Origin: Malachius bipustulatus
Lineage: Eukaryota; Arthropoda; Insecta; Coleoptera; Melyridae
Reading direction: 5' to 3'
DNA: 64,000 nucleotides
Assembly (NCBI GenBank): GCA_910589415.1
Contig: OU342636.1
Location: 6,306,437-6,370,436 of the forward strand
In this document: positions 1 to 41,800 of the stretch, in pieces
Layout of the letters: each line of letters opens with the position of its first letter
How positions within the stretch are numbered: the first letter of the stretch is position 1
Translations under genes and position numbers: made by a program
The notes under the pieces: model-generated
Told to the model about the DNA's origin: nothing
Databases searched by the model: none
What the model saw: only the letters and a program-made list of their open reading frames with translations

Positions 1-222
1 TTAAATTATTTTAAAGGGAGGTCATGGATTACCCATCATTGCGGTTCCAATAGAGTTGTTTATGAAAATTTAGAGACAATAAACCGGATCATCTTTTGTT
101 TCACATGCGCAATTTTGCAAAGTTTTTTCTTTTTTTCAAAGACTTTGTAGTTGAAAGACGCAAGTTTTTTTAAAAGAACAATGCAGGTACATAACCAAAT
201 ATTGTCTATTCAAAATATTGAT

Positions 223-238
223 GGCCCTGAAAAGGGCC
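223..238 (-). promoter_or_regulatory. Histone-type mRNA 3' stem-loop (copy 1; repeated in every unit)
   Basis: On the mRNA (minus) strand this reads GGCCCTTTTCAGGGCC: a perfect 6-bp stem and a UUUC loop, fitting the metazoan replication-dependent histone stem-loop GGCYCUUUUCAGRGCC. The 3' flank is ATCAA, close to the usual ACCA-type flank. In histone genes SLBP binds this hairpin and cleavage occurs a few nucleotides downstream, giving a mRNA without poly(A). The element lies 31-46 bases beyond the stop codon in every copy I read and showed no base change by eye, while poly(A) hexamers nearby vary. Confidence 0.85.
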
Positions 239-268
239 GGGTTTTAAATGATGATAGTTCAAGACCGA

Positions 269-499
269 CTAGCGGTGGATTTGTTTCTCCAACATCACCA
301 ACTCTTTGAACAGCGTGTTCACCAGTTTCCGTATCCCATCGATTAACGACAAGAGTACGAGGTATTCCGTGTATCTCGTCACCTCGTCGTTTTCAATCAT
401 TTCTTCTATTTCGTAGCGTATCTCTTGGATATTGGTGTCTAGAATTTTATTAAGCCGCCATCTCTGTTCGATTTGCTTCTTTACATCGGATGTGTTCAT
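269..499 (-). CDS. Array gene copy 1: 76-aa helical protein of unknown function with histone-type mRNA 3' end
   Basis: Reference copy for the array. I do not recognise the protein. It looks like two long helices, about residues 4-36 and 40-74, separated by an N-D-E turn at 37-39. The first has heptad spacing at I10, I17, L20, I24, I27, I31 and M34 with a lone W14; the second has L52, I56, L59, L63 and L70. This suggests a coiled-coil hairpin. Charges nearly cancel (14 D/E, 12 K/R), so it is not a histone, and no signal peptide or membrane segment is seen. The start codon is the first ATG after the predicted transcription start. TATA 549-556 implies a 5' leader of only about 20-30 nt. After the TAG stop, a 30-nt 3' leader runs to the histone-type hairpin at 223-238. 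No intron is needed. This copy differs from the consensus by I17N. Translation is inferred from frame conservation only. Confidence 0.72.
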   Translation of the reverse strand: MNTSDVKKQIEQRWRLNKILDTNIQEIRYEIEEMIENDEVTRYTEYLVLLSLIDGIRKLVNTLFKELVMLEKQIHR

Positions 500-548
500 C
501 TTGAACGTCTGCAGTACTCTGTTGCGGTTGTGATCATCTCTACGCCTA

Positions 549-556
549 CTTATATA
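549..556 (-). promoter_or_regulatory. TATA box of copy 1
   Basis: TATATAAG on the minus strand, 50-57 bases upstream of the ATG, placing transcription start near 525-531 (GATCACAACC). The same box is at the same offset in nearly all copies. Copies 11 and 14 carry a T-to-A change that makes it GAATATAAG. Confidence 0.8.
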
Positions 557-575
557 CCTTTCCTAATGTTAGCGC

Positions 576-591
576 AACCGACGGTTACCGT
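576..591 (-). promoter_or_regulatory. Two overlapping dyads upstream of the TATA box
   Basis: Plus strand AACCGACGGTT (576-586) and ACGGTTACCGT (581-591) are each 5-1-5 inverted repeats that share a half-site. AACCG fits the general Myb half-site AACNG. They sit 20-35 bp upstream of the TATA box, where an activator site is expected. They are conserved in most units. Single changes occur in copies 11 and 14 (ATCCG), 49 and 51 (AACCC), 26 (GGTCACC) and 47 (ACCTT). The factor is unknown. Confidence 0.45.
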
Positions 592-647
592 GGCGCCCCG
601 ACTGAATGCTAATTGATATGGCGCTCACGAGAACTTCAACGAGATGA

Positions 648-659
648 AGCGTAAACGCT
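648..659. promoter_or_regulatory. Palindrome AGCGTAAACGCT in the distal promoter
   Basis: A 5-2-5 inverted repeat about 92-103 bp upstream of the TATA box of copy 1. It is present at the same offset throughout the array. It may be a protein site or may have no function. Confidence 0.35.
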
Positions 660-1252
660 AAAATTTGTTATTTTTTTTTTATAAACCTATTTCGTTGAAA
701 TATGATAAAGGCGCATCACTTATACGTTTACATGGCAACTTTCGAAGATGAAACACTTGTTTTTATATCTACAGCCACTAGCCCCTAAATCCGAAAATAT
801 ATCCCCGAGAAATTTTTTTCAATTTTAAATCGGTCTATGAATGATAAGGGAAGTTACATCTTTTTGTATTGCTTTTATCATCGTTCCAATGATAAATACG
901 TAGACTCTAATCCCGGGATAAATGCAAATTCATTTTCTGGGAATATAAAACTCGAAGACTTTATTCGCCATTTTCGCTTCATAATTAAATTATTTTAAAG
1001 GGAGGTCATGGATTACCCATCATTGCGGTTCCAATAGAGTTGTTTATGAAAATTTAGAGACAATAAACCGGATCATCTTTTGTTTCACATGCGCAATTTT
1101 GCAAAGTTTTTTCTTTTTTTCAAAGACTTTGTAGTTGAAAGACGCAAGTTTTTTTAAAAGAACAATGCAGGTACATAACCAAATATTGTCTATTCAAAAT
1201 ATTGATGGCCCTGAAAAGGGCCGGGTTTTAAATGATGATAGTTCAAGACCGA

Positions 1253-1483
1253 CTAGCGGTGGATTTGTTTCTCCAACATCACCAACTCTTTGAACAGCGT
1301 GTTCACCAGTTTCCGTATCCCATCGATTAACGATAAGAGTACGAGGTATTCCGTGTATCTCGTCACCTCGTCGTTGTCAATCATTTCTTCTATTTCGTAG
1401 CGTATCTCTTGGATATTGGTGTCTAGAATTTTAATAAGCCGCCATCTCTGTTCGATTTGCTTCTTTACATCGGATGTGTTCAT
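1253..1483 (-). CDS. Array gene copy 2
   Basis: Full length, with E36D shared with copies 7 and 9. Hairpin 1207-1222, TATA 1533-1540. The 5' leader has CTGTTGGGG instead of CTGTTGCGG, also seen in copies 7, 9, 32 and 34. Confidence 0.68.
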   Translation of the reverse strand: MNTSDVKKQIEQRWRLIKILDTNIQEIRYEIEEMIDNDEVTRYTEYLVLLSLIDGIRKLVNTLFKELVMLEKQIHR

Positions 1484-2232
1484 CTTGAACGTCTGCAGTA
1501 CTCTGTTGGGGTTGTGATCGTCCCTACGCCTACTTATATACCTTTCCTAATGTTAGCGCAACCGACGGTTACCGTGGCGCCCCGACTGAATGCTAATTGA
1601 TATGGCGCTCACGAGAACTACAACGAGATGAAGCGTAAACGCTAAAATTTGTTATTTTTTTTTATAAACCTATTTCGTTGAAATATGATAAAAGGCGCAT
1701 CACTTATACGTTTACATGGCAACTTTCGAAGATGAAACACTTGTTTTTATATCTACAGCCACTAGCCCCTAAATCCGAAAATATATCCCCGAGAAATTTT
1801 TTTCAATTTTAAATCGGTCTATAAATGATAAGGGAAGTTACATCTTTTTGTATTGCTTTTATCATCGTTCCAATGATAAATACGTAGACTTTAATTCTGG
1901 GATAAATGCAAATTCATATTCTGGGAATATAAAACTCGAAGAGTTTTTTCGCCATTTTCGCTTCATAATTAAATTATTTTAAAGGTAGGTCATGGATTAC
2001 CCATCATTGCGGTTCCAATAGAGTTGTTTATGAAAATTTAGAGACAATAAACCGGATCATCTTTTGTTTCACATGCGCAATTTTGCAAAGTTTTTTCTTT
2101 CAAAGACTTTGTAGTTGAAAGACGCAAGTTTTTTTAAAAGAACAATGCAGGTACATAACCAAATATTGTCTATTCAAAATATTGATGGCCCTGAAAAGGG
2201 CCGGGTTTTAAATGATGATAGTTCAAGACCGA

Positions 2233-2463
2233 CTAGCGGTGGATTTGTTTCTCCAACATCACCAACTCTTTGAACAGCGTGTTCACCAGTTTCCGTATCC
2301 CATCGATTAACGACAAGAGTACGAGGTATTCCGTGTATCTCGTCACCTCGTCGTTTTCAATCATTTCTTCTATTTCGTAGCGTATCTATTGGATATTGGT
2401 GTCTAGAATTTTAATAAGCCGCCATCTCTGTTCGATTTGCTTCTTTACATCGGATGTGTTCAT
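2233..2463 (-). pseudogene. Array gene copy 3, E26 nonsense
   Basis: Codon 26 (2386-2388) is TAG instead of GAG, so only 25 residues can be made from the normal start. Start, frame, stop, hairpin (2187-2202) and TATA (2513-2520) are otherwise intact, so the lesion is a single recent substitution. Confidence 0.8.
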
Positions 2464-3215
2464 CTTGAACGTCTGCAGTACTCTGTTGCGGTTGTGATCG
2501 TCCCTACGCCTACTTATATACCTTTCCTAATTTTAGCGCAACCGACGGTTACCGTGGCGCCTCGACTGAATGCTAATTGATATGGCGCTCACGAGAACTA
2601 CAACGAGATGAAGCGTAAACGCTAAAATTTGTTATTTTTTTTTATAAACCTATTTCGTTGAAATATGATAAAGGCGCACCACTTATACGTTTACATGGCA
2701 ACTTTCGAAGATGAAACACTTGTTTTTATATCTACAGCCACTAGCCCCTAAATCCGAAAATATATCCCCGAGAAATTTTTTTCAATTTTAAATCGGTCTA
2801 TGAATGATAAGGGAAGCTACATCTTTTTGTATTGCTTTTATCATCGTTCCAATGATAAATACGTAGACTTTAATCCCGGGATAAATGCAAATTCATATTC
2901 TGGGAATATAAAACTCGAAGAGTTTATTCGCCATTTTCGCTTCATAATTAAATTATTTTAAAGGGAGGTCATGGATTACCCATCATTGCGGTTCCAATAG
3001 AGTTGTTTATGAAAATTTAGAGACAATAAACCGGATCATCTTTTGTTTCACATGCGCAATTTTGCAAAGTTTTTTCTTTTTTTCAAAGACTTTGTAGTTG
3101 AAAGACGCAAGTTTTTTTAAAAGAACAATGCAGGTACATAACCAAATATTGTCTATTCAAAATATTGATGGCCCTGAAAAGGGCCGGGTTTTAAATGATG
3201 ATAGTTCAAGACCGA

Positions 3216-3446
3216 CTAGCGGTGGATTTGTTTCTCCAACATCACCAACTCTTTGAACAGCGTGTTCACCAGTTTCCGTATCCCATCGATTAACGATAAG
3301 AGTACGAGGTATTCCGTGTATCTCGTCACCTCGTCGTTTTCAATCATTTCTTCTATTTCGTAGCGTATCTCTTGGATATTGGTGTCTAGAATTTTAATAA
3401 GCCGCCATCTCTGTTCGATTTGCTTCTTTACATCGGATGTGTTCAT
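3216..3446 (-). CDS. Array gene copy 4
   Basis: Consensus 76-aa protein. Hairpin 3170-3185, TATA 3496-3503. Confidence 0.68.
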   Translation of the reverse strand: MNTSDVKKQIEQRWRLIKILDTNIQEIRYEIEEMIENDEVTRYTEYLVLLSLIDGIRKLVNTLFKELVMLEKQIHR

Positions 3447-4198
3447 CTTGAACGTCTGCAGTACTCTGTTGCGGTTGTGATCGTCCCTACGCCTACTTAT
3501 ATACCTTTCCTAATGTTAGCGCAACCGACGGTTACCGTGGCGCCCCGACTGAATGCTAATTGATATGGCGCTCACGAGAACTTCAACGAGATGAAGCGTA
3601 AACGCTAAAATTTGTTATTTTTTTTTATAAATCTATTTCGTTGAAATATGATAAAGGCGCATCACTTATACGTTTACATGGCAACTTTCGAAGATGAAAC
3701 ACTTGTTTTTATATCTACAGCCACTAGCCCCTAAATCCGAAAATATATCCCCGAGAAATTTTTTTCAATTTTAAATCGGTCTATGAATGATAAGGGAAGT
3801 TACATCTTTTTGTATTGCTTTTATCATCGTTCCAATGATAAATACGTAGACTTTAATCCCGGGATAAATGCAAATTCATATTCTGGGAATATAAAACTCG
3901 AAGAGTTTATTCGCCATTTTCGCTTCATAATTAAATTATTTTAAAGGGAGGTCATGGATTACCCATCATTGCGGTTCCAATAGAGTTGTTTATGAAAATT
4001 TAGAGACAATAAACCGGATCATCTTTTGTTTCACATGCGCAATTTTGCAAAGTTTTTTCTTTTTTTCAAAGACTTTGTAGTTGAAAGACGCAAGTTTTTT
4101 TAAAAGAACAATGCAGATATATAACCAAATATTGTCTATTCAAAATATTGATGGCCCTGAAAAGGGCCGGGTTTTAAATGATGATAGTTCAAGACCGA

Positions 4199-4429
4199 CT
4201 AGCGGTGGATTTGTTTCTCCAACATCACCAACTCTTTGAACAGCGTGTTCACCAGTTTCCGTATCCCATCGATTAACGACAAGAGTACGAGGTATTCCGT
4301 GTATCTCGTCACCTCGTCGTTTTCAATCATTTCTTCTATTTCGTAGCGTATCTCTTGGATATTGGTGTCTAGAATTTTAATAAGCCGCCATCTCTGTTCG
4401 ATTTGCTTCTTTACATCGGATGTGTTCAT
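4199..4429 (-). CDS. Array gene copy 5
   Basis: Consensus protein. Hairpin 4153-4168, TATA 4479-4486. Downstream of the hairpin it has GCAGATATATAACC in place of GCAGGTACATAACC, a marker shared with copies 10, 12 and 15. Confidence 0.68.
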   Translation of the reverse strand: MNTSDVKKQIEQRWRLIKILDTNIQEIRYEIEEMIENDEVTRYTEYLVLLSLIDGIRKLVNTLFKELVMLEKQIHR

Positions 4430-5177
4430 CTTGAACGTCTGCAGTACTCTGTTGCGGTTGTGATCGTCCCTACGCCTACTTATATACCTTTCCTAATGTT
4501 AGCGCAACCGACGGTTACCGTGGCGCCCCGACTGAATGCTAATTGATATGGCGCTCACGAGAACTACAACGAGATGAAGCGTAAACGCTAAAATTTGTTA
4601 TTTTTTTTTATAAACCTATTTCGTTGAAATATGATAAAGGCGCATCACTTATACGTTTACATGGCAACTTTCGAAGATGAAACACTTGTTTTTATATCTA
4701 CAGCCACTAGCCCCTAAATCCGAAAATATATCCCCGAGAAATTTTTTTCAATTTTAAATCGGTCTATGAATGATAAGGGAAGTTACATCTTTTTGTATTG
4801 CTTTCATCATCGTTCCAATGATAAATACGTAGACTGTAATCCCGGGATAAATGCAAATTCATATTCTGGGAATATAAAACTCGAAGAGTTTATTCGCCAT
4901 TTTCGCTTCATAATTAAATTATTTTAAAGGGAGGTCATGGATTACCCATCATTACGGTTCCAATAGAGTTGTTTATGAAAATTTAGAGACAATAAACCGG
5001 ATCATCTTTTGTTTCACATGCGCAATTTTGCAAAGTTTTTTCTTTCAAAGACTTTGTAGTTGAAAGACGCAAGTTTTTTTAAAAGAACAATGCAGGTACA
5101 TAACCAAATATTTTCTATTCAAAATATTGATGGCCCTGAAAAGGGCCGGGTTTTAAATGATGATAGTTCAAGACCGA

Positions 5178-5408
5178 CTAGCGGTGGATTTGTTTCTCCA
5201 ACATCACCAACTCTTTGAACAGCGTGTTCACCAGTTTCCGTATCCCATCGATTAACGACAAGAGTACGAGGTATTCCGTGTATCTCGTCACCTCGTCGTT
5301 TTCAATCATTTCTTCTATTTCGTAGCGTATCTCTTGGATATTGGTGTCTAGAATTTTAATAAGCCGCCATCTCTGTTCGATTTGCTTCTTTACATCGGAT
5401 GTGTTCAT
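5178..5408 (-). CDS. Array gene copy 6
   Basis: Consensus protein. Hairpin 5132-5147, TATA 5458-5465. The unit has the short form of the pyrimidine stretch (4 bp fewer). Confidence 0.68.
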   Translation of the reverse strand: MNTSDVKKQIEQRWRLIKILDTNIQEIRYEIEEMIENDEVTRYTEYLVLLSLIDGIRKLVNTLFKELVMLEKQIHR

Positions 5409-6160
5409 CTTGAACGTCTGCAGTACTCTGTTGCGGTTGTGATCGTCCCTACGCCTACTTATATACCTTTCCTAATGTTAGCGCAACCGACGGTTACCGT
5501 GGCGCCCCGACTGAATGCTAATTGATATGGCGCTCACGAGAACTACAACGAGATGAAGCGTAAACGCTAAAATTTGTTATTTTTTTTATAAACCTATTTC
5601 GTTGAAATATGATAAAAGGCGCATCACTTATACGTTTACATGGCAACTTTCGAAGATGAAACACTTGTTTTTATATCTACAGCCACTAGCCCCTAAATCC
5701 GAAAATATATCCCCGAGAAATTTTTTTCAATTTTAAATCGGTCTATGAATGATAAGGGAAGTTACATCTTTTTGTATTGCTTTTATCATCGTTCCAATGA
5801 TAAATACGTAGACTCTAATCCCGGGATAAATGCAAATTCATTTTCTGGGAATATAAAACTCGAAGACTTTATTCGCCATTTTCGCTTCATAATTAAATTA
5901 TTTTAAAGGGAGGTCATGGATTACCCATCATTGCGGTTCCAATAGAGTTGTTTATGAAAATTTAGAGACAATAAACCGGATCATCTTTTGTTTCACATGC
6001 GCAATTTTGCAAAGTTTTTTCTTTTTTTCAAAGACTTTGTAGTTGAAAGACGCAAGTTTTTTTAAAAGAACAATGCAGGTACATAACCAAATATTGTCTA
6101 TTCAAAATATTGATGGCCCTGAAAAGGGCCGGGTTTTAAATGATGATAGTTCAAGACCGA

Positions 6161-6391
6161 CTAGCGGTGGATTTGTTTCTCCAACATCACCAACTCTTTG
6201 AACAGCGTGTTCACCAGTTTCCGTATCCCATCGATTAACGATAAGAGTACGAGGTATTCCGTGTATCTCGTCACCTCGTCGTTGTCAATCATTTCTTCTA
6301 TTTCGTAGCGTATCTCTTGGATATTGGTGTCTAGAATTTTAATAAGCCGCCATCTCTGTTCGATTTGCTTCTTTACATCGGATGTGTTCAT
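6161..6391 (-). CDS. Array gene copy 7
   Basis: E36D variant, near-duplicate of copy 2 at a distance of five units (4908 bp). Hairpin 6115-6130, TATA 6441-6448. Confidence 0.68.
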   Translation of the reverse strand: MNTSDVKKQIEQRWRLIKILDTNIQEIRYEIEEMIDNDEVTRYTEYLVLLSLIDGIRKLVNTLFKELVMLEKQIHR

Positions 6392-7151
6392 CTTGAACGT
6401 CTGCAGTACTCTGTTGGGGTTGTGATCGTCCCTACGCCTACTTATATACCTTTCCTAATGTTAGCGCAACCGACGGTTACCGTGGCGCCCCGACTGAATG
6501 CTAATTGATATGGCGCTCACGAGAACTACAACGAGATGAAGCGTAAACGCTAAAATTTGTTATTTTTTTTATAAACCTATTTCGTTGAAATATGATAAAA
6601 GGCGCATCACTTATACGTTTACATGGCAACTTTCGAAGATGAAACACTTGTTTTTATATCTACAGCCACTAGCCCCTAAATCCGAAAATATATCCCCGAG
6701 AAATTTTTTTCAATTTTAAATCGGTCTATAAATGATAAGGGAAGTTACATCTTTTTGTATTGCTTTTATCATCGTTCCAATGATAAATACGTAGACTTTA
6801 ATCCCGGGATAAATGCAAATTCATATTCTGGGAATATAAAACTCGAAGAGTTTTTTCGCCATTTTCGCTTCATAATTAAATTATTTTAAAGGTAGGTCAT
6901 GGATTACCCATCATTGCGGTTCCAATAGAGTTGTTTATGAAAATTTAGAGACAATAAACCGGATCATCTTTTGTTTCACATGCGCAATTTTGCAAAGTTT
7001 TTTCTTTCAAAGACTTTGTAGTTGAAAGACGCAAGTTTTTTTGAAAGAACAATGCAGGTACATAACCAAATATTGTCTATTCAAAATATTGATGGCCCTG
7101 AAAAGGGCCGGATTTTAAATGATGATAGTTCAAGACCGACTAGCGGTGGAT

Positions 7152-7370
7152 TTATTTCTCCAACATCACCAACTCTTTGAACAGCGTGTTCACCAGTTTC
7201 CGTATCCCATCGATTAACGATAAGAGTACGAGGTATTCCGTGTATCTCGTCACCTCGTCGTTTTCAATCATTTCTTCTATTTCGTAGCGTATCTCTTGGA
7301 TATTGGTGTCTAGAATTTTAATAAGCCGCCATCTCTGTTCGATTTGCTTCTTTACATCGGATGTGTTCAT
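7152..7370 (-). CDS. Array gene copy 8, truncated at residue 72
   Basis: Q73 is changed to TAA, removing the last four residues (Q-I-H-R). The old stop position is 7140-7142. Hairpin 7094-7109, TATA 7420-7427. The lost residues lie at the end of helix 2, so the protein may still fold. Copy 32 has the same nonsense change. Confidence 0.6.
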   Translation of the reverse strand: MNTSDVKKQIEQRWRLIKILDTNIQEIRYEIEEMIENDEVTRYTEYLVLLSLIDGIRKLVNTLFKELVMLEK

Positions 7371-8122
7371 CTTGAACGTCTGCAGTACTCTGTTGCGGTT
7401 GTGATCGTCCCTACGCCTACTTATATACCTTTCCTAATGTTAGCGCAACCGACGGTTACCGTGGCGCCCCGACTGAATGCTAATTGATATGGCGCTCACG
7501 AGAACTTCAACGAGATGAAGCGTAAACGCTAAAATTTGTTATTTTTTTTTTATAAACCTATTTCGTTGAAATATGATAAAGGCGCATCACTTATACGTTT
7601 ACATGCAACTTTCGAAGATGAAACACTTGTTTTTATATCTACAGCCACTAGCCCCTAAATCCGAAAATATATCCCCGAGAAATTTTTTTCAATTTTAAAT
7701 CGGTCTATGAATGATAAGGGAAGTTACATCTTTTTGTATTGCTTTTATCATCGTTCCAATGATAAATACGTAGACTCTAATCCCGGGATAAATGCAAATT
7801 CATTTTCTGGGAATATAAAACTCGAAGACTTTATTCGCCATTTTCGCTTCATAATTAAATTATTTTAAAGGGAGGTCATGGATTACCCATCATTGCGGTT
7901 CCAATAGAGTTGTTTATGAAAATTTAGAGACAATAAACCGGATCATCTTTTGTTTCACATGCGCAATTTTGCAAAGTTTTTTCTTTTTTTCAAAGACTTT
8001 GTAGTTGAAAGACGCAAGTTTTTTTAAAAGAACAATGCAGGTACATAACCAAATATTGTCTATTCAAAATATTGATGGCCCTGAAAAGGGCCGGGTTTTA
8101 AATGATGATAGTTCAAGACCGA

Positions 8123-8353
8123 CTAGCGGTGGATTTGTTTCTCCAACATCACCAACTCTTTGAACAGCGTGTTCACCAGTTTCCGTATCCCATCGATTAA
8201 CGATAAGAGTACGAGGTATTCCGTGTATCTCGTCACCTCGTCGTTGTCAATCATTTCTTCTATTTCGTAGCGTATCTCTTGGATATTGGTGTCTAGAATT
8301 TTAATAAGCCGCCATCTCTGTTCGATTTGCTTCTTTACATCGGATGTGTTCAT
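8123..8353 (-). CDS. Array gene copy 9
   Basis: E36D variant. Hairpin 8077-8092, TATA 8403-8410. Confidence 0.68.
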   Translation of the reverse strand: MNTSDVKKQIEQRWRLIKILDTNIQEIRYEIEEMIDNDEVTRYTEYLVLLSLIDGIRKLVNTLFKELVMLEKQIHR

Positions 8354-9105
8354 CTTGAACGTCTGCAGTACTCTGTTGGGGTTGTGATTGTCCCTACGCC
8401 TACTTATATACCTTTCCTAATGTTAGCGCAACCGACGGTTACCGTGGCGCCCCGACTGAATGCTAATTGATATGGCGCTCACGAGAACTTCAACGAGATG
8501 AAGCGTAAACGCTAAAATTTGTTATTTTTTTTTATAAATCTATTTCGTTGAAATATGATAAAGGCGCATCACTTATACGTTTACATGGCAACTTTCGAAG
8601 ATGAAACACTTGTTTTTATATCTACAGCCACTAGCCCCTAAATCCGAAAATATATCCCCGAGAAATTTTTTTCAATTTTAAATCGGTCTATGAATGATAA
8701 GGGAAGTTACATCTTTTTGTATTGCTTTTATCATCGTTCCAATGATAAATACGTAGACTTTAATCCCGGGATAAATGCAAATTCATATTCTGGGAATATA
8801 AAACTCGAAGAGTTTATTCGCCATTTTCGCTTCATAATTAAATTATTTTAAAGGGAGGTCATGGATTACCCATCATTGCGGTTCCAATAGAGTTGTTTAT
8901 GAAAATTTAGAGACAATAAACCGGATCATCTTTTGTTTCACATGCGCAATTTTGCAAAGTTTTTTCTTTTTTTCAAAGACTTTGTAGTTGAAAGACGCAA
9001 GTTTTTTTAAAAGAACAATGCAGATATATAACCAAATATTGTCTATTCAAAATATTGATGGCCCTGAAAAGGGCCGGGTTTTAAATGATGATAGTTCAAG
9101 ACCGA

Positions 9106-9336
9106 CTAGCGGTGGATTTGTTTCTCCAACATCACCAACTCTTTGAACAGCGTGTTCACCAGTTTCCGTATCCCATCGATTAACGACAAGAGTACGAGGT
9201 ATTCCGTGTATCTCGTCACCTCGTCGTTTTCAATCATTTCTTCTATTTCGTAGCGTATCTCTTGGATATTGGTGTCTAGAATTTTAATAAGCCGCCATCT
9301 CTGTTCGATTTGCTTCTTTACATCGGATGTGTTCAT
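9106..9336 (-). CDS. Array gene copy 10
   Basis: Consensus protein. Hairpin 9060-9075, TATA 9386-9393. It carries the ATATATAACC marker, five units (4907 bp) from copy 5. Confidence 0.68.
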   Translation of the reverse strand: MNTSDVKKQIEQRWRLIKILDTNIQEIRYEIEEMIENDEVTRYTEYLVLLSLIDGIRKLVNTLFKELVMLEKQIHR

Positions 9337-10084
9337 CTTGAACGTCTGCAGTACTCTGTTGCGGTTGTGATCGTCCCTACGCCTACTTATATACCTTTCC
9401 TAATGTTAGCGCAACCGACGGTTACCGTGGCGCCCCGACTGAATGCTAATTGATATGGCGCTCACGAGAACTACAACGAGATGAAGCGTAAACGCTAAAA
9501 TTTGTTATTTTTTTTTATAAACCTATTTCGTTGAAATATGATAAAGGCGCATCACTTATACGTTTACATGGCAACTTTCGAAGATGAAACACTTGTTTTT
9601 ATATCTACAGCCACTAGCCCCTAAATCCGAAAATATATCCCCGAGAAATTTTTTTCAATTTTAAATCGGTCTATGAATGATAAGGGAAGTTACATCTTTT
9701 TGTATTGCTTTCATCATCGTTCCAATGATAAATACGTAGACTTTAATCCCGGGATAAATGCAAATTCATATTCTGGGAATATAAAACTCGAAGAGTTTAT
9801 TCGCCATTTTCGCTTCATAATTAAATTATTTTAAAGGGAGGTCATGGATTACCCATCATTACGGTTCCAATAGAGTTGTTTATGAAAATTTAGAGACAAT
9901 AAACCGGATCATCTTTTGTTTCACATGCGCAATTTTGCAAAGTTTTTTCTTTCAAAGACTTTGTAGTTGAAAGACGCAAGTTTTTTTAAAAGAACAATGC
10001 AGGTACATAACCAAATATTGTCTATTCAAAATATTGATGGCCCTGAAAAGGGCCGGGTTTTAAATGATGATAGTTCAAGACCGA

Positions 10085-10315
10085 CTAGCGGTGGATTTGT
10101 TTCTCCAACATCACCAACTCTTTGAACAGCGTGTTCACCAGTTTCCGTATCCCATCGATTAACGACAAGAGTACGAGGTATTCCGTGTATCTCGTCACCT
10201 CGTCGTTTTCAATCATTTCTTCTATTTCGTAGCGTATCTCTTGGATATTGGTGTCTAGAATTTTAATAAGCCGCCATCTCTGTTCGATTTGCTTCTTTAC
10301 ATCGGATGTGTTCAT
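10085..10315 (-). CDS. Array gene copy 11, altered promoter
   Basis: Consensus protein. Hairpin 10039-10054. The TATA region (10365-10372) reads GAATATAAG and the upstream dyad has ATCCG for AACCG, so this copy may be transcribed differently. Copy 14 has the same promoter haplotype. Confidence 0.65.
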   Translation of the reverse strand: MNTSDVKKQIEQRWRLIKILDTNIQEIRYEIEEMIENDEVTRYTEYLVLLSLIDGIRKLVNTLFKELVMLEKQIHR

Positions 10316-11067
10316 CTTGAACGTCTGCAGTACTCTGTTGCGGTTGTGATCGTCTCTACGCCTACTTATATTCCTTTCCTAATGTTAGCGCATCCGACGG
10401 TTACCGTGGCGCCCCGACTGAATGCTAATTGATATGGCGCTCACGAGAACTACAACGAGATGAAGCGTAAACGCTAAAATTTGTTATTTTTTTTTATAAA
10501 CCTATTTCGTCGAAATATGATAAAGGCGCATCACTTATACGTTTACATGGCAACTTTCGAAGATGAAACACTTGTTTTTATATCTACAGCCACTAGCCCC
10601 TAAATCCGAAAATATATCCCCGAGAAATTTTTTTCAATTTTAAATCGGTCTATAAATGATAAGGGAAGTTACATCTTTTTGTATTGCTTTTATCATCGTT
10701 CCAATGATAAATACGTAGACTTTAATCCCGGGATAAATGCAAATTCATATTCTGGGAATATAAAACTCGAAGAGTTTATTCGCCATTTTCGCTTCATAAT
10801 TAAATTATTTTAAAGGTAGGTCATGGATTACCCATCATTGCGGTTCCAATAGAGTTGTTTATGAAAATTTAGAGACAATAAACCGGATCATCTTTTGTTT
10901 CACATGCGCAATTTTGCAAAGTTTTTTCTTTTTTTCAAAGACTTTGTAGTTGAAAGACGCAAGTTTTTTTAAAAGAACAATGCAGATATATAACCAAATA
11001 TTGTCTATTCAAAATATTGATGGCCCTGAAAAGGGCCGGGTTTTAAATGATGATAGTTCAAGACCGA

Positions 11068-11298
11068 CTAGCGGTGGATTTGTTTCTCCAACATCACCAA
11101 CTCTTTGAACAGCGTGTTCACCAGTTTCCGTATCCCATCGATTAACGACAAGAGTACGAGGTATTCCGTGTATCTCGTCACCTCGTCGTTTTCAATCATT
11201 TCTTCTATTTCGTAGCGTATCTCTTGGATATTGGTGTCTAGAATTTTAATAAGCCGCCATCTCTGTTCGATTTGCTTCTTTACATCGGATGTGTTCAT
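11068..11298 (-). CDS. Array gene copy 12
   Basis: Consensus protein. Hairpin 11022-11037, TATA 11348-11355. A 1-bp insertion near 11637 (CTATGTAATG) is shared with copy 15. Confidence 0.68.
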   Translation of the reverse strand: MNTSDVKKQIEQRWRLIKILDTNIQEIRYEIEEMIENDEVTRYTEYLVLLSLIDGIRKLVNTLFKELVMLEKQIHR

Positions 11299-12051
11299 CT
11301 TGAACGTCTGCAGTACTCTGTTGCGGTTGTGATCGTCCCTACGCCTACTTATATACCTTTCCTAATGTTAGCGCAACCGACGGTTACCGTGGCGCCCCGA
11401 CTGAATGCTAATTGATATGGCGCTCACGAGAACTACAACGAGATGAAGCGTAAACGCTAAAATTTGTTATTTTTTTTTATAAACCTATTTCGTTGAAATA
11501 TGATAAAGGCGCATCACTTATACGTTTACATGGCAACTTTCGAAGATGAAACACTTGTTTTTATATCTACAGCCACTAGCCCCTAAATCCGAAAATATAT
11601 CCCCGAGAAATTTTTTTCAATTTTAAATCGGTCTATGTAATGATAAGGGAAGTTACATCTTTTTGTATTGCTTTTATCATCGTTCCAATGATAAATACGT
11701 AGACTTTAATCCCGGGATAAATGCAAATTCATATTCTGGGAATATAAAACTCGAAGAGTTTATTCGCCATTTTCGCTTCGTAATTAAATTATTTTAAAGG
11801 GAGGTCATGGATTACCCATCATTGCGGTTCCAATAGAGTTGTTTATGAAAATTTAGAGACAATAAACCGGATCATCTTTTGTTTCACATGCGCAATTTTG
11901 CAAAGTTTTTTCTTTTTTTCAAAGACTTTGTAGTTGAAAGACGCAAGTTTTTTTAAAAGAACAATGCAGGTACATAACCAAATATTGTCTATTCAAAATA
12001 TTGATGGCCCTGAAAAGGGCCGGGTTTTAAATGATGATAGTTCAAGACCGA

Positions 12052-12282
12052 CTAGCGGTGGATTTGTTTCTCCAACATCACCAACTCTTTGAACAGCGTG
12101 TTCACCAGTTTCCGTATCCCATCGATTAACGACAAGAGTACGAGGTATTCCGTGTATCTCGTCACCTCGTCGTTTTCAATCATTTCTTCTATTTCGTAGC
12201 GTATCTCTTGGATATTGGTGTCTAGAATTTTAATAAGCCGCCATCTCTGTTCGATTTGCTTCTTTACATCGGATGTGTTCAT
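12052..12282 (-). CDS. Array gene copy 13
   Basis: Consensus protein. Hairpin 12006-12021, TATA 12332-12339. Confidence 0.68.
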   Translation of the reverse strand: MNTSDVKKQIEQRWRLIKILDTNIQEIRYEIEEMIENDEVTRYTEYLVLLSLIDGIRKLVNTLFKELVMLEKQIHR

Positions 12283-13029
12283 CTTGAACGTCTGCAGTAC
12301 TCTGTTGCGGTTGTGATCGTCCCTACGCCTACTTATATACCTTTCCTAATGTTAGCGCAACCGACGGTTACCGTGGCGCCTCGACTGAATGCTAATTGAT
12401 ATGGCGCTCACGAGAACTACAACGAGATGAAGCGTAAACGCTAAAATTTGTTATTTTTTTTATAAACCTATTTCGTTGAAATATGATAAAGGCGCATCAC
12501 TTATACGTTTACATGGCAACTTTCGAAGATGAAACACTTGTTTTTATATCTACAGCCACTAGCCCCTAAATCCGAAAATATATCCCCGAGAAATTTTTTT
12601 CAATTTTAAATCGGTCTATGAATGATAAGGGAAGTTACATCTTTTTGTATTGCTTTTATCATCGTTCCAATGATAAATACGTAGACTTTAATCCCGGGAT
12701 AAATGCAAATTCATATTCTGGGAATATAAAACTCGAAGAGTTTTTTCGTCATTTTCGCTTCATAATTAAATTATTTTAAAGGGAGGTCATGGATTACCCA
12801 TCATTGCGGTTCCAATAGAGTTGTTTATGAAAATTTAGAGACAATAAACCGGATCATCTTTTGTTTCACATGCGCAATTTTGCAAAGTTTTTTCTTTCAA
12901 AGACTTTGTAGTTGAAAGACGCAAGTTTTTTTAAAAGAACAATGCAGGTACATAACCAAATATTGTCTATTCAAAATATTGATGGCCCTGAAAAGGGCCG
13001 GGTTTTAAATGATGATAGTTCAAGACCGA

Positions 13030-13260
13030 CTAGCGGTGGATTTGTTTCTCCAACATCACCAACTCTTTGAACAGCGTGTTCACCAGTTTCCGTATCCCAT
13101 CGATTAACGACAAGAGTACGAGGTATTCCGTGTATCTCGTCACCTCGTCGTTTTCAATCATTTCTTCTATTTCGTAGCGTATCTCTTGGATATTGGTGTC
13201 TAGAATTTTAATAAGCCGCCATCTCTGTTCGATTTGCTTCTTTACATCGGATGTGTTCAT
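13030..13260 (-). CDS. Array gene copy 14, altered promoter
   Basis: Consensus protein. Hairpin 12984-12999. It has the same altered TATA (13310-13317) and dyad as copy 11, three units (2945 bp) away. Confidence 0.65.
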   Translation of the reverse strand: MNTSDVKKQIEQRWRLIKILDTNIQEIRYEIEEMIENDEVTRYTEYLVLLSLIDGIRKLVNTLFKELVMLEKQIHR

Positions 13261-14012
13261 CTTGAACGTCTGCAGTACTCTGTTGCGGTTGTGATCGTCT
13301 CTACGCCTACTTATATTCCTTTCCTAATGTTAGCGCATCCGACGGTTACCGTGGCGCCCCGACTGAATGCTAATTGATATGGCGCTCACGAGAACTACAA
13401 CGAGATGAAGCGTAAACGCTAAAATTTGTTATTTTTTTTTATAAACCTATTTCGTCGAAATATGATAAAGGCGCATCACTTATACGTTTACATGGCAACT
13501 TTCGAAGATGAAACACTTGTTTTTATATCTACAGCCACTAGCCCCTAAATCCGAAAATATATCCCCGAGAAATTTTTTTCAATTTTAAATCGGTCTATAA
13601 ATGATAAGGGAAGTTACATCTTTTTGTATTGCTTTTATCATCGTTCCAATGATAAATACGTAGACTTTAATCCCGGGATAAATGCAAATTCATATTCTGG
13701 GAATATAAAACTCGAAGAGTTTATTCGCCATTTTCGCTTCATAATTAAATTATTTTAAAGGTAGGTCATGGATTACCCATCATTGCGGTTCCAATAGAGT
13801 TGTTTATGAAAATTTAGAGACAATAAACCGGATCATCTTTTGTTTCACATGCGCAATTTTGCAAAGTTTTTTCTTTTTTTCAAAGACTTTGTAGTTGAAA
13901 GACGCAAGTTTTTTTAAAAGAACAATGCAGATATATAACCAAATATTGTCTATTCAAAATATTGATGGCCCTGAAAAGGGCCGGGTTTTAAATGATGATA
14001 GTTCAAGACCGA

Positions 14013-14243
14013 CTAGCGGTGGATTTGTTTCTCCAACATCACCAACTCTTTGAACAGCGTGTTCACCAGTTTCCGTATCCCATCGATTAACGACAAGAGT
14101 ACGAGGTATTCCGTGTATCTCGTCACCTCGTCGTTTTCAATCATTTCTTCTATTTCGTAGCGTATCTCTTGGATATTGGTGTCTAGAATTTTAATAAGCC
14201 GCCATCTCTGTTCGATTTGCTTCTTTACATCGGATGTGTTCAT
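14013..14243 (-). CDS. Array gene copy 15
   Basis: Consensus protein. Hairpin 13967-13982, TATA 14293-14300. Three-unit duplicate of copy 12. Confidence 0.68.
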   Translation of the reverse strand: MNTSDVKKQIEQRWRLIKILDTNIQEIRYEIEEMIENDEVTRYTEYLVLLSLIDGIRKLVNTLFKELVMLEKQIHR

Positions 14244-14996
14244 CTTGAACGTCTGCAGTACTCTGTTGCGGTTGTGATCGTCCCTACGCCTACTTATATA
14301 CCTTTCCTAATGTTAGCGCAACCGACGGTTACCGTGGCGCCCCGACTGAATGCTAATTGATATGGCGCTCACGAGAACTACAACGAGATGAAGCGTAAAC
14401 GCTAAAATTTGTTATTTTTTTTTATAAACCTATTTCGTTGAAATATGATAAAGGCGCATCACTTATACGTTTACATGGCAACTTTCGAAGATGAAACACT
14501 TGTTTTTATATCTACAGCCACTAGCCCCTAAATCCGAAAATATATCCCCGAGAAATTTTTTTCAATTTTAAATCGGTCTATGTAATGATAAGGGAAGTTA
14601 CATCTTTTTGTATTGCTTTTATCATCGTTCCAATGATAAATACGTAGACTTTAATCCCGGGATAAATGCAAATTCATATTCTGGGAATATAAAACTCGAA
14701 GAGTTTATTCGCCATTTTCGCTTCATAATTAAATTATTTTAAAGGGAGGTCATGGATTACCCATCATTGCGGTTCCAATAGAGTTGTTTATGAAAATTTA
14801 GAGACAATAAACCGGATCATCTTTTGTTTCACATGCGCAATTTTGCAAAGTTTTTTCTTTTTTTCAAAGACTTTGTAGTTGAAAGACGCAAGTTTTTTTA
14901 AAAGAACAATGCAGGTACATAACCAAATATTGTCTATTCAAAATATTGATGGCCCTGAAAAGGGCCGGGTTTTAAATGATGATAGTTCAAGACCGA

Positions 14997-15227
14997 CTAG
15001 CGGTGGATTTGTTTCTCCAACATCACCAACTCTTTGAACAGCGTGTTCACCAGTTTCCGTATCCCATCGATTAACGACAAGAGTACGAGGTATTCCGTGT
15101 ATCTCGTCACCTCGTCGTTTTCAATCATTTCTTCTATTTCGTAGCGTATCTCTTGGATATTGGTGTCTAGAATTTTAATAAGCCGCCATCTCTGTTCGAT
15201 TTGCTTCTTTACATCGGATGTGTTCAT
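14997..15227 (-). CDS. Array gene copy 16
   Basis: Consensus protein. Hairpin 14951-14966, TATA 15277-15284. Three-unit duplicate of copy 13. Confidence 0.68.
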   Translation of the reverse strand: MNTSDVKKQIEQRWRLIKILDTNIQEIRYEIEEMIENDEVTRYTEYLVLLSLIDGIRKLVNTLFKELVMLEKQIHR

Positions 15228-15978
15228 CTTGAACGTCTGCAGTACTCTGTTGCGGTTGTGATCGTCCCTACGCCTACTTATATACCTTTCCTAATGTTAG
15301 CGCAACCGACGGTTACCGTGGCGCCTCGACTGAATGCTAATTGATATGGCGCTCACGAGAACTACAACGAGATGAAGCGTAAACGCTAAAATTTGTTATT
15401 TTTTTTATAAACCTATTTCGTTGAAATATGATAAAGGCGCATCACTTATACGTTTACATGGCAACTTTCGAAGATGAAACACTTGTTTTTATATCTACAG
15501 CCACTAGCCCCTAAATCCGAAAATATATCCCCGAGAAATTTTTTTCAATTTTAAATCGGTCTATGAATGATAAGGGAAGTTACATCTTTTTGTATTGCTT
15601 TTATCATCGTTCCAATGATAAATACGTAGACTTTAATCCCGGGATAAATGCAAATTCATATTCTGGGAATATAAAACTCGAAGAGTTTATTCGCCATTTT
15701 CGCTTCATAATTAAATTATTTTAAAGGGAGGTCATGGATTACCCATCATTGCGGTTCCAATAGAGTTGTTTATGAAAATTTAGAGACAATAAACCGGATC
15801 ATCTTTTGTTTCACATGCGCAATTTTGCAAAGTTTTTTCTTTTTTTCAAAGACTTTGTAGTTGAAAGACGCAAGTTTTTTTAAAAGAACAATGCAGGTAC
15901 ATAACCAAATATTGTCTATTCAAAATATTGATGGCCCTGAAAAGGGCCGGGTTTTAAATGATGATAGTTCAAGACCGA

Positions 15979-16209
15979 CTAGCGGTGGATTTGTTTCTCC
16001 AACATCACCAACTCTTTGAACAGCGTGTTCACCAGTTTCCGTATCCCATCGATTAACGACAAGAGTACGAGGTATTCCGTGTATCTCGTCACCTCGTCGT
16101 TTTCAATCATTTCTTCTATTTCGTAGCGTATCTCTTGGATATTGGTGTCTAGAATTTTAATAAGCCGCCATCTCTGTTCGATTTGCTTCTTTACATCGGA
16201 TGTGTTCAT
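15979..16209 (-). CDS. Array gene copy 17
   Basis: Consensus protein. Hairpin 15933-15948, TATA 16259-16266. Confidence 0.68.
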   Translation of the reverse strand: MNTSDVKKQIEQRWRLIKILDTNIQEIRYEIEEMIENDEVTRYTEYLVLLSLIDGIRKLVNTLFKELVMLEKQIHR

Positions 16210-16961
16210 CTTGAACGTCTGCAGTACTCTGTTGCGGTTGTGATCGTCCCTACGCCTACTTATATACCTTTCCTAATGTTAGCGCAACCGACGGTTACCG
16301 TGGCGCCCCGACTGAATGCTAATTGATATGGCGCTCACGAGAACTACAACGAGATGAAGCGTAAACGCTAAAATTTGTTATTTTTTTTTATAAACCTATT
16401 TCGTTGAAATATGATAAAGGCGCATCACTTATACGTTTACATGGCAACTTTCGAAGATGAAACACTTGTTTTTATATCTACAGCCACTAGCCCCTAAATC
16501 CGAAAATATATCCCCGAGAAATTTTTTTCAATTTTAAATCGGTCTATGAATGATAAGGGAAGTTACATCTTTTTGTATTGCTTTTATCATCGTTCCAATG
16601 ATAAATACGTAGACTTTAATCCCGGGATAAATGCAAATTCATATTCTGGGAATATAAAACTCGAAGAGTTTATTCGCCATTTTCGCTTCATAATTAAATT
16701 ATTTTAAAGGGAGGTCATGGATTACCCATCATTGCGGTTCCAATAGAGTTGTTTATGAAAATTTAGAGACAATAAACCGGATCATCTTTTGTTTCACATG
16801 CGCAATTTTGCAAAGTTTTTTCTTTTTTTCAAAGACTTTGTAGTTGAAAGACGCAAGTTTTCTTAAAAGAACAATGCAGGTACATAACCAAATATTGTCT
16901 ATTCAAAATATTGATGGCCCTGAAAAGGGCCGGGTTTTAAATGATGATAGTTCAAGACCGA

Positions 16962-17192
16962 CTAGCGGTGGATTTGTTTCTCCAACATCACCAACTCTTT
17001 GAACAGCGTGTTCACCAGTTTCCGTATCCCATCGATTAACGACAAGAGTACGAGGTATTCCGTGTATCTCGTCACCTCGTCGTTTTCAATCATTTCTTCT
17101 ATTTCGTAGCGTATCTCTTGGATATTGGTGTCTAGAATTTTAATAAGCCGCCATCTCTGTTCGATTTGCTTCTTTACATCGGATGTGTTCAT
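16962..17192 (-). CDS. Array gene copy 18
   Basis: Consensus protein. Hairpin 16916-16931, TATA 17242-17249. Confidence 0.68.
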   Translation of the reverse strand: MNTSDVKKQIEQRWRLIKILDTNIQEIRYEIEEMIENDEVTRYTEYLVLLSLIDGIRKLVNTLFKELVMLEKQIHR

Positions 17193-17944
17193 CTTGAACG
17201 TCTGCAGTACTCTGTTGCGGTTGTGATCGTCCCTACGCCTACTTATATACCTTTCCTAATGTTAGCGCAACCGACGGTTACCGTGGCGCCTCGACTGAAT
17301 GCTAATTGATATGGCGCTCACGAGAACTACAACGAGATGAAGCGTAAACGCTAAAATTTGTTATTTTTTTTTATAAACCTATTTCGTTGAAATATGATAA
17401 AGGCGCATCACTTATACGTTTACATGGCAACTTTCGAAGATGAAACACTTGTTTTTATATCTACAGCCACTAGCCCCTAAATCCGAAAATATATCCCCGA
17501 GAAATTTTTTTCAATTTTAAATCGGTCTATGAATGATAAGGGAAGTTACATCTTTTTGTATTGCTTTTATCATCGTTCCAATGATAAATACGTAGACTTT
17601 AATCCCGGGATAAATGCAAATTCATATTCTGGGAATATAAAACTCGAAGAGTTTTTTCGCCATTTTCGCTTCATAATTAAATTATTTTAAAGGGAGGTCA
17701 TGGATTACCCATCATTGCGGTTCCAATAGAGTTGTTTATGAAAATTTAGAGACAATAAACCGGATCATCTTTTGTTTCACATGCGCAATTTTGCAAAGTT
17801 TTTTCTTTTTTTTAAAGACTTTGTAGTTGAAAGACGCAAGTTTTTTTAAAAGAACAATGCAGGTACATAACCAAATATTGTCTATTCAAAATATTGATGG
17901 CCCTGAAAAGGGCCGGGTTTTAAATGATGATAGTTCAAGACCGA

Positions 17945-18175
17945 CTAGCGGTGGATTTGTTTCTCCAACATCACCAACTCTTTGAACAGCGTGTTCACCA
18001 GTTTCCGTATCCCATCGATTAACGACAAGAGTACGAGGTATTCCGTGTATCTCGTCACCTCGTCGTTTTCAATCATTTCTTCTATTTCGTAGCGTATCTC
18101 TTGGATATTGGTGTCTAGAATTTTAATAAGCCGCCATCTCTGTTCGATTTGCTTCTTTACATCGGATGTGTTCAT
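17945..18175 (-). CDS. Array gene copy 19
   Basis: Consensus protein. Hairpin 17899-17914, TATA 18225-18232. Confidence 0.68.
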   Translation of the reverse strand: MNTSDVKKQIEQRWRLIKILDTNIQEIRYEIEEMIENDEVTRYTEYLVLLSLIDGIRKLVNTLFKELVMLEKQIHR

Positions 18176-18927
18176 CTTGAACGTCTGCAGTACTCTGTTG
18201 CGGTTGTGATCGTCCCTACGCCTACTTATATACCTTTCCTAATGTTAGCGCAACCGACGGTTACCGTGGCGCCTCGACTGAATGCTAATTGATATGGCGC
18301 TCACGAGAACTACAACGAGATGAAGCGTAAACGCTAAAATTTGTTATTTTTTTTTATAAACCTATTTCGTTGAAATATGATAAAGGCGCATCACTTATAC
18401 GTTTACATGGCAACTTTCGAAGATGAAACACTTGTTTTTATATCTACAGCCACTAGCCCCTAAATCCGAAAATATATCCCCGAGAAATTTTTTTCAATTT
18501 TAAATCGGTCTATGAATGATAAGGGAAGTTACATCTTTTTGTATTGCTTTTATCATCGTTCCAATGATAAATACGTAGACTTTAATCCCGGGATAAATGC
18601 AAATTCATATTCTGGGAATATAAAACTCGAAGAGTTTATTCGCCATTTTCGCTTCATAATTAAATTATTTTAAAGGGAGGTCATGGATTACCCATCATTG
18701 CGGTTCCAATAGAGTTGTTTATGAAAATTTAGAGACAATAAACCGGATCATCTTTTGTTTCACATGCGCAATTTTGCAAAGTTTTTTCTTTTTTTCAAAG
18801 ACTTTGTAGTTGAAAGACGCAAGTTTTTTTAAAAGAACAATGCAGGTACATAACCAAATATTGTCTATTCAAAATATTGATGGCCCTGAAAAGGGCCGGG
18901 TTTTAAATGATGATAGTTCAAGACCGA

Positions 18928-19158
18928 CTAGCGGTGGATTTGTTTCTCCAACATCACCAACTCTTTGAACAGCGTGTTCACCAGTTTCCGTATCCCATCG
19001 ATTAACGACAAGAGTACGAGGTATTCCGTGTATCTCGTCACCTCGTCGTTTTCAATCATTTCTTCTATTTCGTAGCGTATCTCTTGGATATTGGTGTCTA
19101 GAATTTTAATAAGCCGCCATCTCTGTTCGATTTGCTTCTTTACATCGGATGTGTTCAT
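18928..19158 (-). CDS. Array gene copy 20
   Basis: Consensus protein. Hairpin 18882-18897, TATA 19208-19215. Confidence 0.68.
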   Translation of the reverse strand: MNTSDVKKQIEQRWRLIKILDTNIQEIRYEIEEMIENDEVTRYTEYLVLLSLIDGIRKLVNTLFKELVMLEKQIHR

Positions 19159-19910
19159 CTTGAACGTCTGCAGTACTCTGTTGCGGTTGTGATCGTCCCT
19201 ACGCCTACTTATATACCTTTCCTAATGTTAGCGCAACCGACGGTTACCGTGGCGCCCCGACTGAATGCTAATTGATATGGCGCTCACGAGAACTACAACG
19301 AGATGAAGCGTAAACGCTAAAATTTGTTATTTTTTTTTATAAACCTATTTCGTTGAAATATGATAAAGGCGCATCACTTATACGTTTACATGGCAACTTT
19401 CGAAGATGAAACACTTGTTTTTATATCTACAGCCACTAGCCCCTAAATCCGAAAATATATCCCCGAGAAATTTTTTTCAATTTTAAATCGGTCTATGAAT
19501 GATAAGGGAAGTTACATCTTTTTGTATTGCTTTTATCATCGTTCCAATGATAAATACGTAGACTTTAATCCCGGGATAAATGCAAATTCATATTCTGGGA
19601 ATATAAAACTCGAAGAGTTTATTCGCCATTTTCGCTTCATAATTAAATTATTTTAAAGGGAGGTCATGGATTACCCATCATTGCGGTTCCAATAGAGTTG
19701 TTTATGAAAATTTAGAGACAATAAACCGGATCATCTTTTGTTTCACATGCGCAATTTTGCAAAGTTTTTTCTTTTTTTCAAAGACTTTGTAGTTGAAAGA
19801 CGCAAGTTTTTTTAAAAGAACAATGCAGGTACATAACCAAATATTGTCTATTCAAAATATTGATGGCCCTGAAAAGGGCCGGGTTTTAAATGATGATAGT
19901 TCAAGACCGA

Positions 19911-20141
19911 CTAGCGGTGGATTTGTTTCTCCAACATCACCAACTCTTTGAACAGCGTGTTCACCAGTTTCCGTATCCCATCGATTAACGACAAGAGTAC
20001 GAGGTATTCCGTGTATCTCGTCACCTCGTCGTTTTCAATCATTTCTTCTATTTCGTAGCGTATCTCTTGGATATTGGTGTCTAGAATTTTAATAAGCCGC
20101 CATCTCTGTTCGATTTGCTTCTTTACATCGGATGTGTTCAT
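19911..20141 (-). CDS. Array gene copy 21
   Basis: Consensus protein. Hairpin 19865-19880, TATA 20191-20198. Confidence 0.68.
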   Translation of the reverse strand: MNTSDVKKQIEQRWRLIKILDTNIQEIRYEIEEMIENDEVTRYTEYLVLLSLIDGIRKLVNTLFKELVMLEKQIHR

Positions 20142-31917: not shown

Positions 31918-31938
31918 CTTGAACGTCTGCAGTACTCT

Positions 31939-33642: not shown

Positions 33643-33644
33643 AT

Positions 33645-40240: not shown

Positions 40241-40255
40241 CCCTTACCTTATTTA

Positions 40256-41791: not shown

Positions 41792-41800
41792 AAGGGGAGG
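41792..41800 (+). other. Polypurine tract
   Basis: AAGGGGAGG, two bases before the 3' LTR. It is the usual primer site for plus-strand DNA synthesis. Confidence 0.85.

What the first reader, a model, noticed from the sequence alone, without database searches (positions are those of the whole stretch)
223..238. Histone-type 3' stem-loop on a multicopy gene that is not a histone
Seen: a 16-nt hairpin GGCCCTTTTCAGGGCC at a fixed 31-46 bases after the stop of all 52 copies, with no substitution noticed while the surrounding sequence varies. Known: this matches the metazoan replication-dependent histone mRNA stem-loop, bound by SLBP; genes other than histones that rely on it are rare. Inference: the array makes large amounts of non-polyadenylated, S-phase or germline/embryonic mRNA for a small non-histone protein. 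This would be a new member of the histone-type mRNA class.
Basis: partly seen in the sequence, partly recalled or inferred. Interest (0 to 1): 0.93.

Follow-up and report, generated by a model that had tools for sequence, protein, structure and literature searches.

The report
Histone-style endings on non-histone gene arrays
A genome, likely an animal's, carries hundreds of copies of a small non-histone reading frame, and several unrelated small ones elsewhere, that are followed by the same hairpin that ends histone messages, so their messages would likely be made and processed like histone messages, by machinery thought to be reserved for histones.

Summary
All 52 copies in the window carry GGCCCTTTTCAGGGCC on the minus strand, and all pass Rfam's Histone3 cut-off. 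The 76-codon frame ends 30 nt before the hairpin and is intact in 45 of 52 copies. Its codon-position G+C bias was matched in 0 of 3000 shuffles; no relative was found. The genome encodes an SLBP domain and an ordinary histone quintet on another contig, whose hairpins score 21-35 bits in that model, against 34.6 or more here.

A hairpin search uncovered further non-histone genes of the same build on contig C14: short frame, TATA-like site 55-81 nt before the ATG, stop 22-34 nt before the hairpin. A transposase-like family carries a similar hairpin just downstream of its coding end, with one compensatory stem change. This is probably a small class of histone-type, non-histone mRNAs.

Against: variation among array copies shows no purifying selection on protein or hairpin, and no RNA data were available. 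Non-polyadenylation, S-phase timing and protein function are inferred.

The parts
223..238 (-). histone-type stem-loop of the first copy, GGCCCTTTTCAGGGCC; 51 further identical copies, the last at 63316-63331
   Evidence: 52 exact matches; 52 of 52 over the RF00032 cut-off
269..499 (-). 76-codon frame with its stop codon, first copy; 30 nt between stop and hairpin; the same frame is intact in 45 of the 52 copies
   Evidence: (G+C by codon position 0.461/0.197/0.605 in the consensus)
549..556 (-). TATA-like site TATATAAG, 57 nt before the ATG (predicted promoter)
   Evidence: sequence; distance (consensus unit)
168..222 (-). 55 nt downstream of the hairpin, predicted to hold the histone downstream (U7-pairing) element
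   Evidence: the consensus stretch resembles that of histone H2B and of gene type B (0 of 500 shuffles each)
1..31938 (-). tandem array of about 983-bp units, left block (33 hairpins)
43507..61418 (-). tandem array, second block (18 hairpins), after a retroelement insertion
63084..64000 (-). tandem array continues after a second insertion (1 hairpin)

Best explanation
The window is part of a tandem array of a small predicted non-histone gene whose copies carry a histone-type stem-loop 30 nt after the stop codon, and its messages are predicted to be cut by the U7 machinery and bound by SLBP, as histone messages are, rather than polyadenylated. Shown by sequence: the unit (TATA-like site, 76-codon frame with codon-phase composition, stem-loop, histone-like downstream stretch), its repetition, an SLBP domain in the genome, and separate canonical histone genes. 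Also shown: three other small non-histone gene types of the same build on contig C14. Inferred: polymerase II transcription from the TATA site, 3' cleavage a few nt after the hairpin, coupling of the mRNA to S phase or to oocyte/embryo stores, and high output from many copies. The product is predicted to be a two-helix hairpin protein of near-neutral charge, so probably not a DNA-packaging protein; its task is unknown.
For: 52 of 52 exact hairpins, all over the Rfam cut-off. In the one histone unit fetched, 5 of 5 histone genes end in hairpins of this type 51-81 nt after their stops; of its six Rfam matches only one (H2B, 35.1 bits) passes the cut-off, so the array's hairpins score about as high as the best real ones. 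SLBP RNA-binding domain at C13. Codon-phase composition, 0 of 3000 shuffles. Downstream stretch like that of H2B and type B. Genes found on C14 by the hairpin alone: type A intact in 8 of 8 fetched copies, type C frame in 3 of 5, type B intact in 1 of 5, with TATA-like sites 55-81 nt before the ATG in the five copies measured. A diverged type A relative (L084) keeps the stop-hairpin layout and a similar downstream stretch.
Against: Within the array, 40 of 50 distinct coding variants are non-synonymous and 10 synonymous, ratio 1.23 after weighting, so no purifying selection on the protein is visible among copies. The hairpin is no more constant than the frame. Frame length alone is not unusual: 157 of 1000 shuffles reach 76 codons. 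An AATAAA lies 241 nt after the hairpin. The U7 search gave no hit, in the controls either. The C14 hairpins were found by exact match, so their identity is by construction, and most type B copies are broken. No RNA data.
Confidence: 0.68

Rival explanations
1. The array is a satellite that froze a once working gene. It is homogenised by unequal exchange and gene conversion, is largely silent, and the hairpin is a relic that stays identical only because the copies are young.
For: Copies differ little and the hairpin is not specially conserved; non-synonymous changes are as free as synonymous ones; the array lies next to transposon-like frames (read from the translations) and is itself invaded by elements.
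Against: 191 of 209 frames are intact; codon-phase composition; the same build recurs with unrelated frames on C14, type A being intact in 8 of 8.
Confidence: 0.2
2. The messages are ordinary polyadenylated mRNAs that use the AATAAA 241 nt further on, and the hairpin only serves SLBP-dependent translation or stability, or is used in some tissues only.
For: AATAAA at 241 nt after the hairpin in the consensus unit.
Against: The hairpin is close behind the stop and followed by a histone-like downstream stretch, as in the genome's own histone genes.
Confidence: 0.1
3. The hairpin is a selfish-element feature: array and transposons took up the histone 3' end separately to time their expression to DNA replication.
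For: A dispersed transposase-like family carries GGTCCTTTTCAGGACC or a near variant just downstream of its coding end (18 of 23 fetched pattern sites outside the histone cluster), and a diverged relative has GGCCCTTTTCAGGGCC at the matching place.
Against: The 76-aa, A and B proteins have no Pfam match at cut-off; the C14 genes form mixed clusters of several gene types. The transposon hairpins score below the Rfam cut-off (20-30 bits).
Confidence: 0.07

Closest known systems
Metazoan replication-dependent histone genes (stem-loop mRNA, SLBP and U7 snRNP)
   Same: 16-nt stem-loop, stop close to the hairpin, TATA-like site, short single-frame unit, tandem multicopy arrangement; compared directly with one histone unit of the same genome. 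The C7 unit has CC before the stem like H3, H4, H2A and H2B.
   Different: No histone family is recognised in the products; the genes lie on C7 and C14, the core histone cluster on C2; stop-to-hairpin distance 22-34 nt against 51-81 nt.
Tandem multicopy genes of insects such as Stellate (recalled, not tested)
   Same: Hundreds of near-identical short genes in transposon-rich DNA.
   Different: No histone-type 3' end is recalled for Stellate; no sequence relation was tested.

Membership tests
Replication-dependent histone-type mRNA (by 3' end) | 6-bp stem, UUUC-type loop, matching the Rfam Histone3 model | tested here: met
   52 of 52 over the gathering score
Replication-dependent histone-type mRNA (by 3' end) | Hairpin shortly after the stop codon, same strand | tested here: met
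   30 nt in intact copies; own histones 51-81 nt
Replication-dependent histone-type mRNA (by 3' end) | Histone downstream element that pairs with U7 snRNA | tested here: inconclusive
   Resembles the H2B stretch; no U7 found, and the controls did not ring either
Replication-dependent histone-type mRNA (by 3' end) | SLBP present in the organism | tested here: met
   PF15247 over cut-off at C13, two adjoining matches
Replication-dependent histone-type mRNA (by 3' end) | mRNA without poly(A), ending a few nt after the hairpin | not testable with these tools
   no RNA data
Replication-dependent histone-type mRNA (by 3' end) | S-phase or maternal/embryonic accumulation | not testable with these tools
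   no RNA data
Histone gene family | Encodes a core or linker histone | tested here: not met
   no Pfam family at cut-off; no homologue found; predicted two-helix protein with 12 K/R and 14 D/E
Histone gene family | Lies in the histone cluster | tested here: not met
   core histone cluster at C2:61.17-61.76 Mb, array on C7 from about 6.07 Mb

The most novel reading that the evidence does not exclude
This animal runs a whole second class of histone-type mRNAs. Several unrelated small proteins (the C7 array protein and gene types A, B and C in mixed clusters on C14) are made from multicopy arrays under SLBP/U7 control, so that their supply follows DNA replication and histone supply. They may be partners in one replication-linked or early-embryo chromatin or chromosome complex, and a transposase-like family has taken over the same ending to time its own expression to S phase.
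Probability: 0.3. Interest if true: 0.93.

Novelty: new variant of a known kind. Interest (0 to 1): 0.8.

Why it matters
[quoted passage not shown] Arrays of non-histone genes with the same ending would break that rule. They would give a natural test of what SLBP and U7 need, and point to proteins whose amount must follow DNA replication. A transposon with the same ending would be a new way for a mobile element to tie expression to S phase.

Tried and rejected
Protein searches: the 76-aa protein had no candidate in about 5.8 billion proteins; type A had 4 candidates, none at E <= 1; Pfam gave nothing at cut-off (type B to HAUS-augmin3 at E 0.028, below cut-off). Type C was not searched. PDB sequences gave TFAM at E 0.5, judged chance. 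Fold search gave 0 of 360 matches at E <= 0.001; the 50 shown have E 1 or more and are mostly helical proteins. Viral contigs: no relative of the 76-aa protein or of the transposase-like piece, and no copy of the transposon hairpin.

Promoter link: a 9-mer, CGGTAACCG, is shared with the H3/H4 promoter, but shuffles reach 9 bases in 15-21% of trials, so it is rejected as evidence. Frame length alone is not significant. Hairpin invariance is rejected as evidence of selection. Paper searches for non-histone stem-loop genes, stem-loop transposons or tandem stem-loop genes (listed 0, 20 of 30, 20 of 137, 15 of 23, 10 of 27, 2 of 2, 8 of 9 and 6 of 6 papers) listed no report that I recognised as such. 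Only listings and abstract starts were read, and the library lacks most subscription journals. The species was not identified and not searched for.

Full report
What is there. The window is C7:6306437-6370436 of a 544-Mb genome in 52 contigs. It holds 52 copies of a unit of about 983 bp, all pointing to the minus strand and each with the exact hairpin GGCCCTTTTCAGGGCC. All 52 pass the Rfam Histone3 gathering score, 34.6 bits or more against a cut-off of 34. Genome-wide the exact 16-mer occurs 305 times, 17 forward and 288 reverse; the first 100 places were listed. A protein search for the 76-aa frame had 282 first-look candidates; 150 were scored, and all 150 listed matches lie on the C7 minus strand.

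The coding unit. On the minus strand a TATA-like site lies 57 nt before an ATG. The frame encodes 76 residues and its stop is 30 nt before the hairpin. Length alone is not special: 157 of 1000 dinucleotide shuffles hold a frame that long. Its G+C by codon position (0.461, 0.197, 0.605) is special: 0 of 3000 shuffles gave a frame of at least 76 codons with that third-position value, out of 599 such frames. Over 209 copies (52 in the window, 157 in 200 kb of the same array) 191 frames are intact, 11 have an early stop and 7 an indel or cut. One search, which did not count insertions, gave 195 intact.

What variation among copies says. In 195 full-length copies I saw 50 distinct coding variants, 10 synonymous and 40 non-synonymous (6 of these stops), a ratio of 1.23 after correcting for opportunity. 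The hairpin differs from consensus at 0.0019 per base, the frame at 0.0025, the DNA further downstream at 0.0022. The array is homogenised, so it cannot show selection on protein or hairpin. This is a result against reading hairpin constancy as evidence of function.

The host has the machinery. An SLBP RNA-binding domain (PF15247) is matched in two adjoining pieces on C13. Core histones form a separate repeated cluster at C2:61.17-61.76 Mb. One unit of it (L041) holds H3, H4, H2A, H2B and H1 frames. All five end in hairpins of this type: GGTTCTTTTCAGAACC for H3, H4 and H2B; GGCCCTTCTCAGGGCC for H2A; GGTCCTTTTCAGGACC for H1. Their Rfam scores are 35.1 (H2B), 33.9 (H4), 30.6 (H3), 27.4 (H2A) and 21 bits (H1), so the array's hairpins score about as high as the best of the real ones. 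The Rfam U7 model found nothing, but it found nothing in the controls either.

Downstream stretch. I compared the 55 nt after the hairpin among 14 sequences (91 pairs) against 500 letter shuffles each. The unit matches histone H2B and gene type B (0 of 500 each). Other pairs at 0 of 500 are A-C, A-transposon, C-L084 and C-H2A; four more reach 0.002-0.008 (C-transposon, L083-H2B, H3-H2B, H3-H1). With 91 pairs about 0.2 results at 0 of 500 are expected by chance; the matches to the transposon show that the likeness is not peculiar to histones. AGAC stands 13-16 nt after the hairpin in H3, H4, H1 and the unit, but not at that place in H2A or H2B (read from the sequences). A histone-like downstream element is therefore plausible but not proven.

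Not alone. The hairpin followed by A and any base but T occurs 23 times genome-wide. Of these, 19 lie in two clusters on C14 (27.58-27.64 and 39.57-39.67 Mb), one more on C14, one on C13, and two are L001 and L002. I fetched 20 of the 21 on C13 and C14; C14:27635514 was left out. Upstream of the hairpin they show unrelated short frames. Type A is 96-99 aa, intact in 8 of 8, stop 22 nt before the hairpin. Type B has its stop 31 nt before, with 1 of 5 intact (93 aa, or 69 aa from a later ATG, which fits the TATA distance better); one of the five partly reads N. Type C is a basic 59-aa frame, stop 24-34 nt before, present in 3 of 5. L084 holds the tail of a diverged type A relative, stop 28 nt before. 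L083 shows no such gene. TATA-like sites lie 64 nt (A, measured in L066), 81 nt (B, later ATG, in L072; only 9 nt from the first ATG), 55-61 nt (C, in L069, L074, L077) and 57 nt (C7 unit) before the ATG. In Rfam, L069 and L077 (C) and L072 (B) pass the cut-off; L066 (A, 31.6), L084 (33.4) and L083 (28.4) do not. The hairpin identity among these loci is by construction; the small frames, the stop distance, the TATA distance and the shared downstream stretch are not. The unit aligns to B and C copies from the hairpin into the downstream stretch (for example 77% over 62 nt, E 5e-8, of which the hairpin is 16 nt by construction), while the proteins do not align convincingly (C7 to A: 10 residues, E 0.08).

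A transposon too. The wider pattern GGYYYTTTTCARRRCC, not preceded by C, occurs 158 times, against 16 for its reversed control; 100 places were listed. Of these 100, 41 lie in the histone cluster, and the two inside L041 are H1 hairpins. Of the other 59 I fetched 23: 18 lie just downstream of the C-terminal coding stretch of a transposase-like frame, some of whose copies have lost the stop by a frameshift, and 5 do not. 'Transposase-like' is recalled from motifs; Pfam gave no hit, while four database proteins are relatives without names. In Rfam these hairpins score 20-30 bits, below the cut-off. L002, a diverged relative, aligns through the frame end and the hairpin (score 117, best of 200 shuffles 47), with T-A replaced by C-G in the stem. 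That is one compensatory change in one comparison. These sites were picked by the pattern, so their conservation is not measured.

Product. AlphaFold2 on the single sequence gives two helices (3-36, 43-74), mean pLDDT 83, pTM 0.54. Fold search found nothing significant. By count of the sequence the protein has 12 K/R and 14 D/E, so it is not a basic packaging protein.

How it most likely works. Shown: gene-like units with histone-type 3' ends, in arrays, in a genome with an SLBP domain and normal histones. Inferred: transcription from the TATA site, cleavage after the hairpin guided by SLBP and U7, mRNA without poly(A) that accumulates in S phase or in oocytes and embryos. What the protein does is unknown; a supply that follows DNA replication is the natural guess. 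That the host is an animal is inferred from SLBP and the histone stem-loops.

Known literature. Eight answered searches of the open library listed nothing that I recognised as a report of non-histone genes or transposons with a genuine histone stem-loop. I read listings and abstract starts only, several lists were cut, and most subscription papers are missing, so priority is not established.

Open points. The 15 forward exact hairpins outside the 23 were not located. The right end of the array, the species, U7, and copies of A, B and C without a hairpin remain unknown, in part because the genome search was mostly unavailable.

Noticed in passing
L042, L043, L044 and 15 of the 20 loci L045-L064; L002: A dispersed transposase-like family carries GGTCCTTTTCAGGACC (or a near variant) with an ACAAC 3' flank just downstream of its coding end; a diverged relative has GGCCCTTTTCAGGGCC at the matching place.
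   Followed up: partly
window 31939-43506: Ty3/Gypsy-type LTR element inserted in one array unit; its two LTRs are 100% identical over 1704 bp and CTCT flanks both ends, so the insertion looks recent.
   Followed up: partly
window about 61419-63083: A second insertion of about 1.7 kb interrupts a unit; its content was not analysed.
   Followed up: no
window 53029-53898 and 55860-56729: Two hairpin spacings of 869 bp instead of about 983 bp.
   Followed up: no
L041 (C2:61426600-61435500): Complete histone quintet in a unit of about 8.5 kb with a long spacer; the H2A hairpin has TTCTCA where the others have TTTTCA.
   Followed up: partly
L083 (C13:31922346-31923256): Two histone-like hairpins in tandem about 19 nt apart, without a recognised gene upstream.
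   Followed up: no
L001 (C2:56275814-56278829): Isolated exact hairpin (Rfam 24 bits) without a recognised upstream frame.
   Followed up: no
window 32141-32212 and 42005-42076: Each LTR holds two copies of GAGTTCCTTTCAGGAACCAAATAAG, a hairpin much like the histone type but shorter; Rfam does not list it at the gathering score.
   Followed up: no
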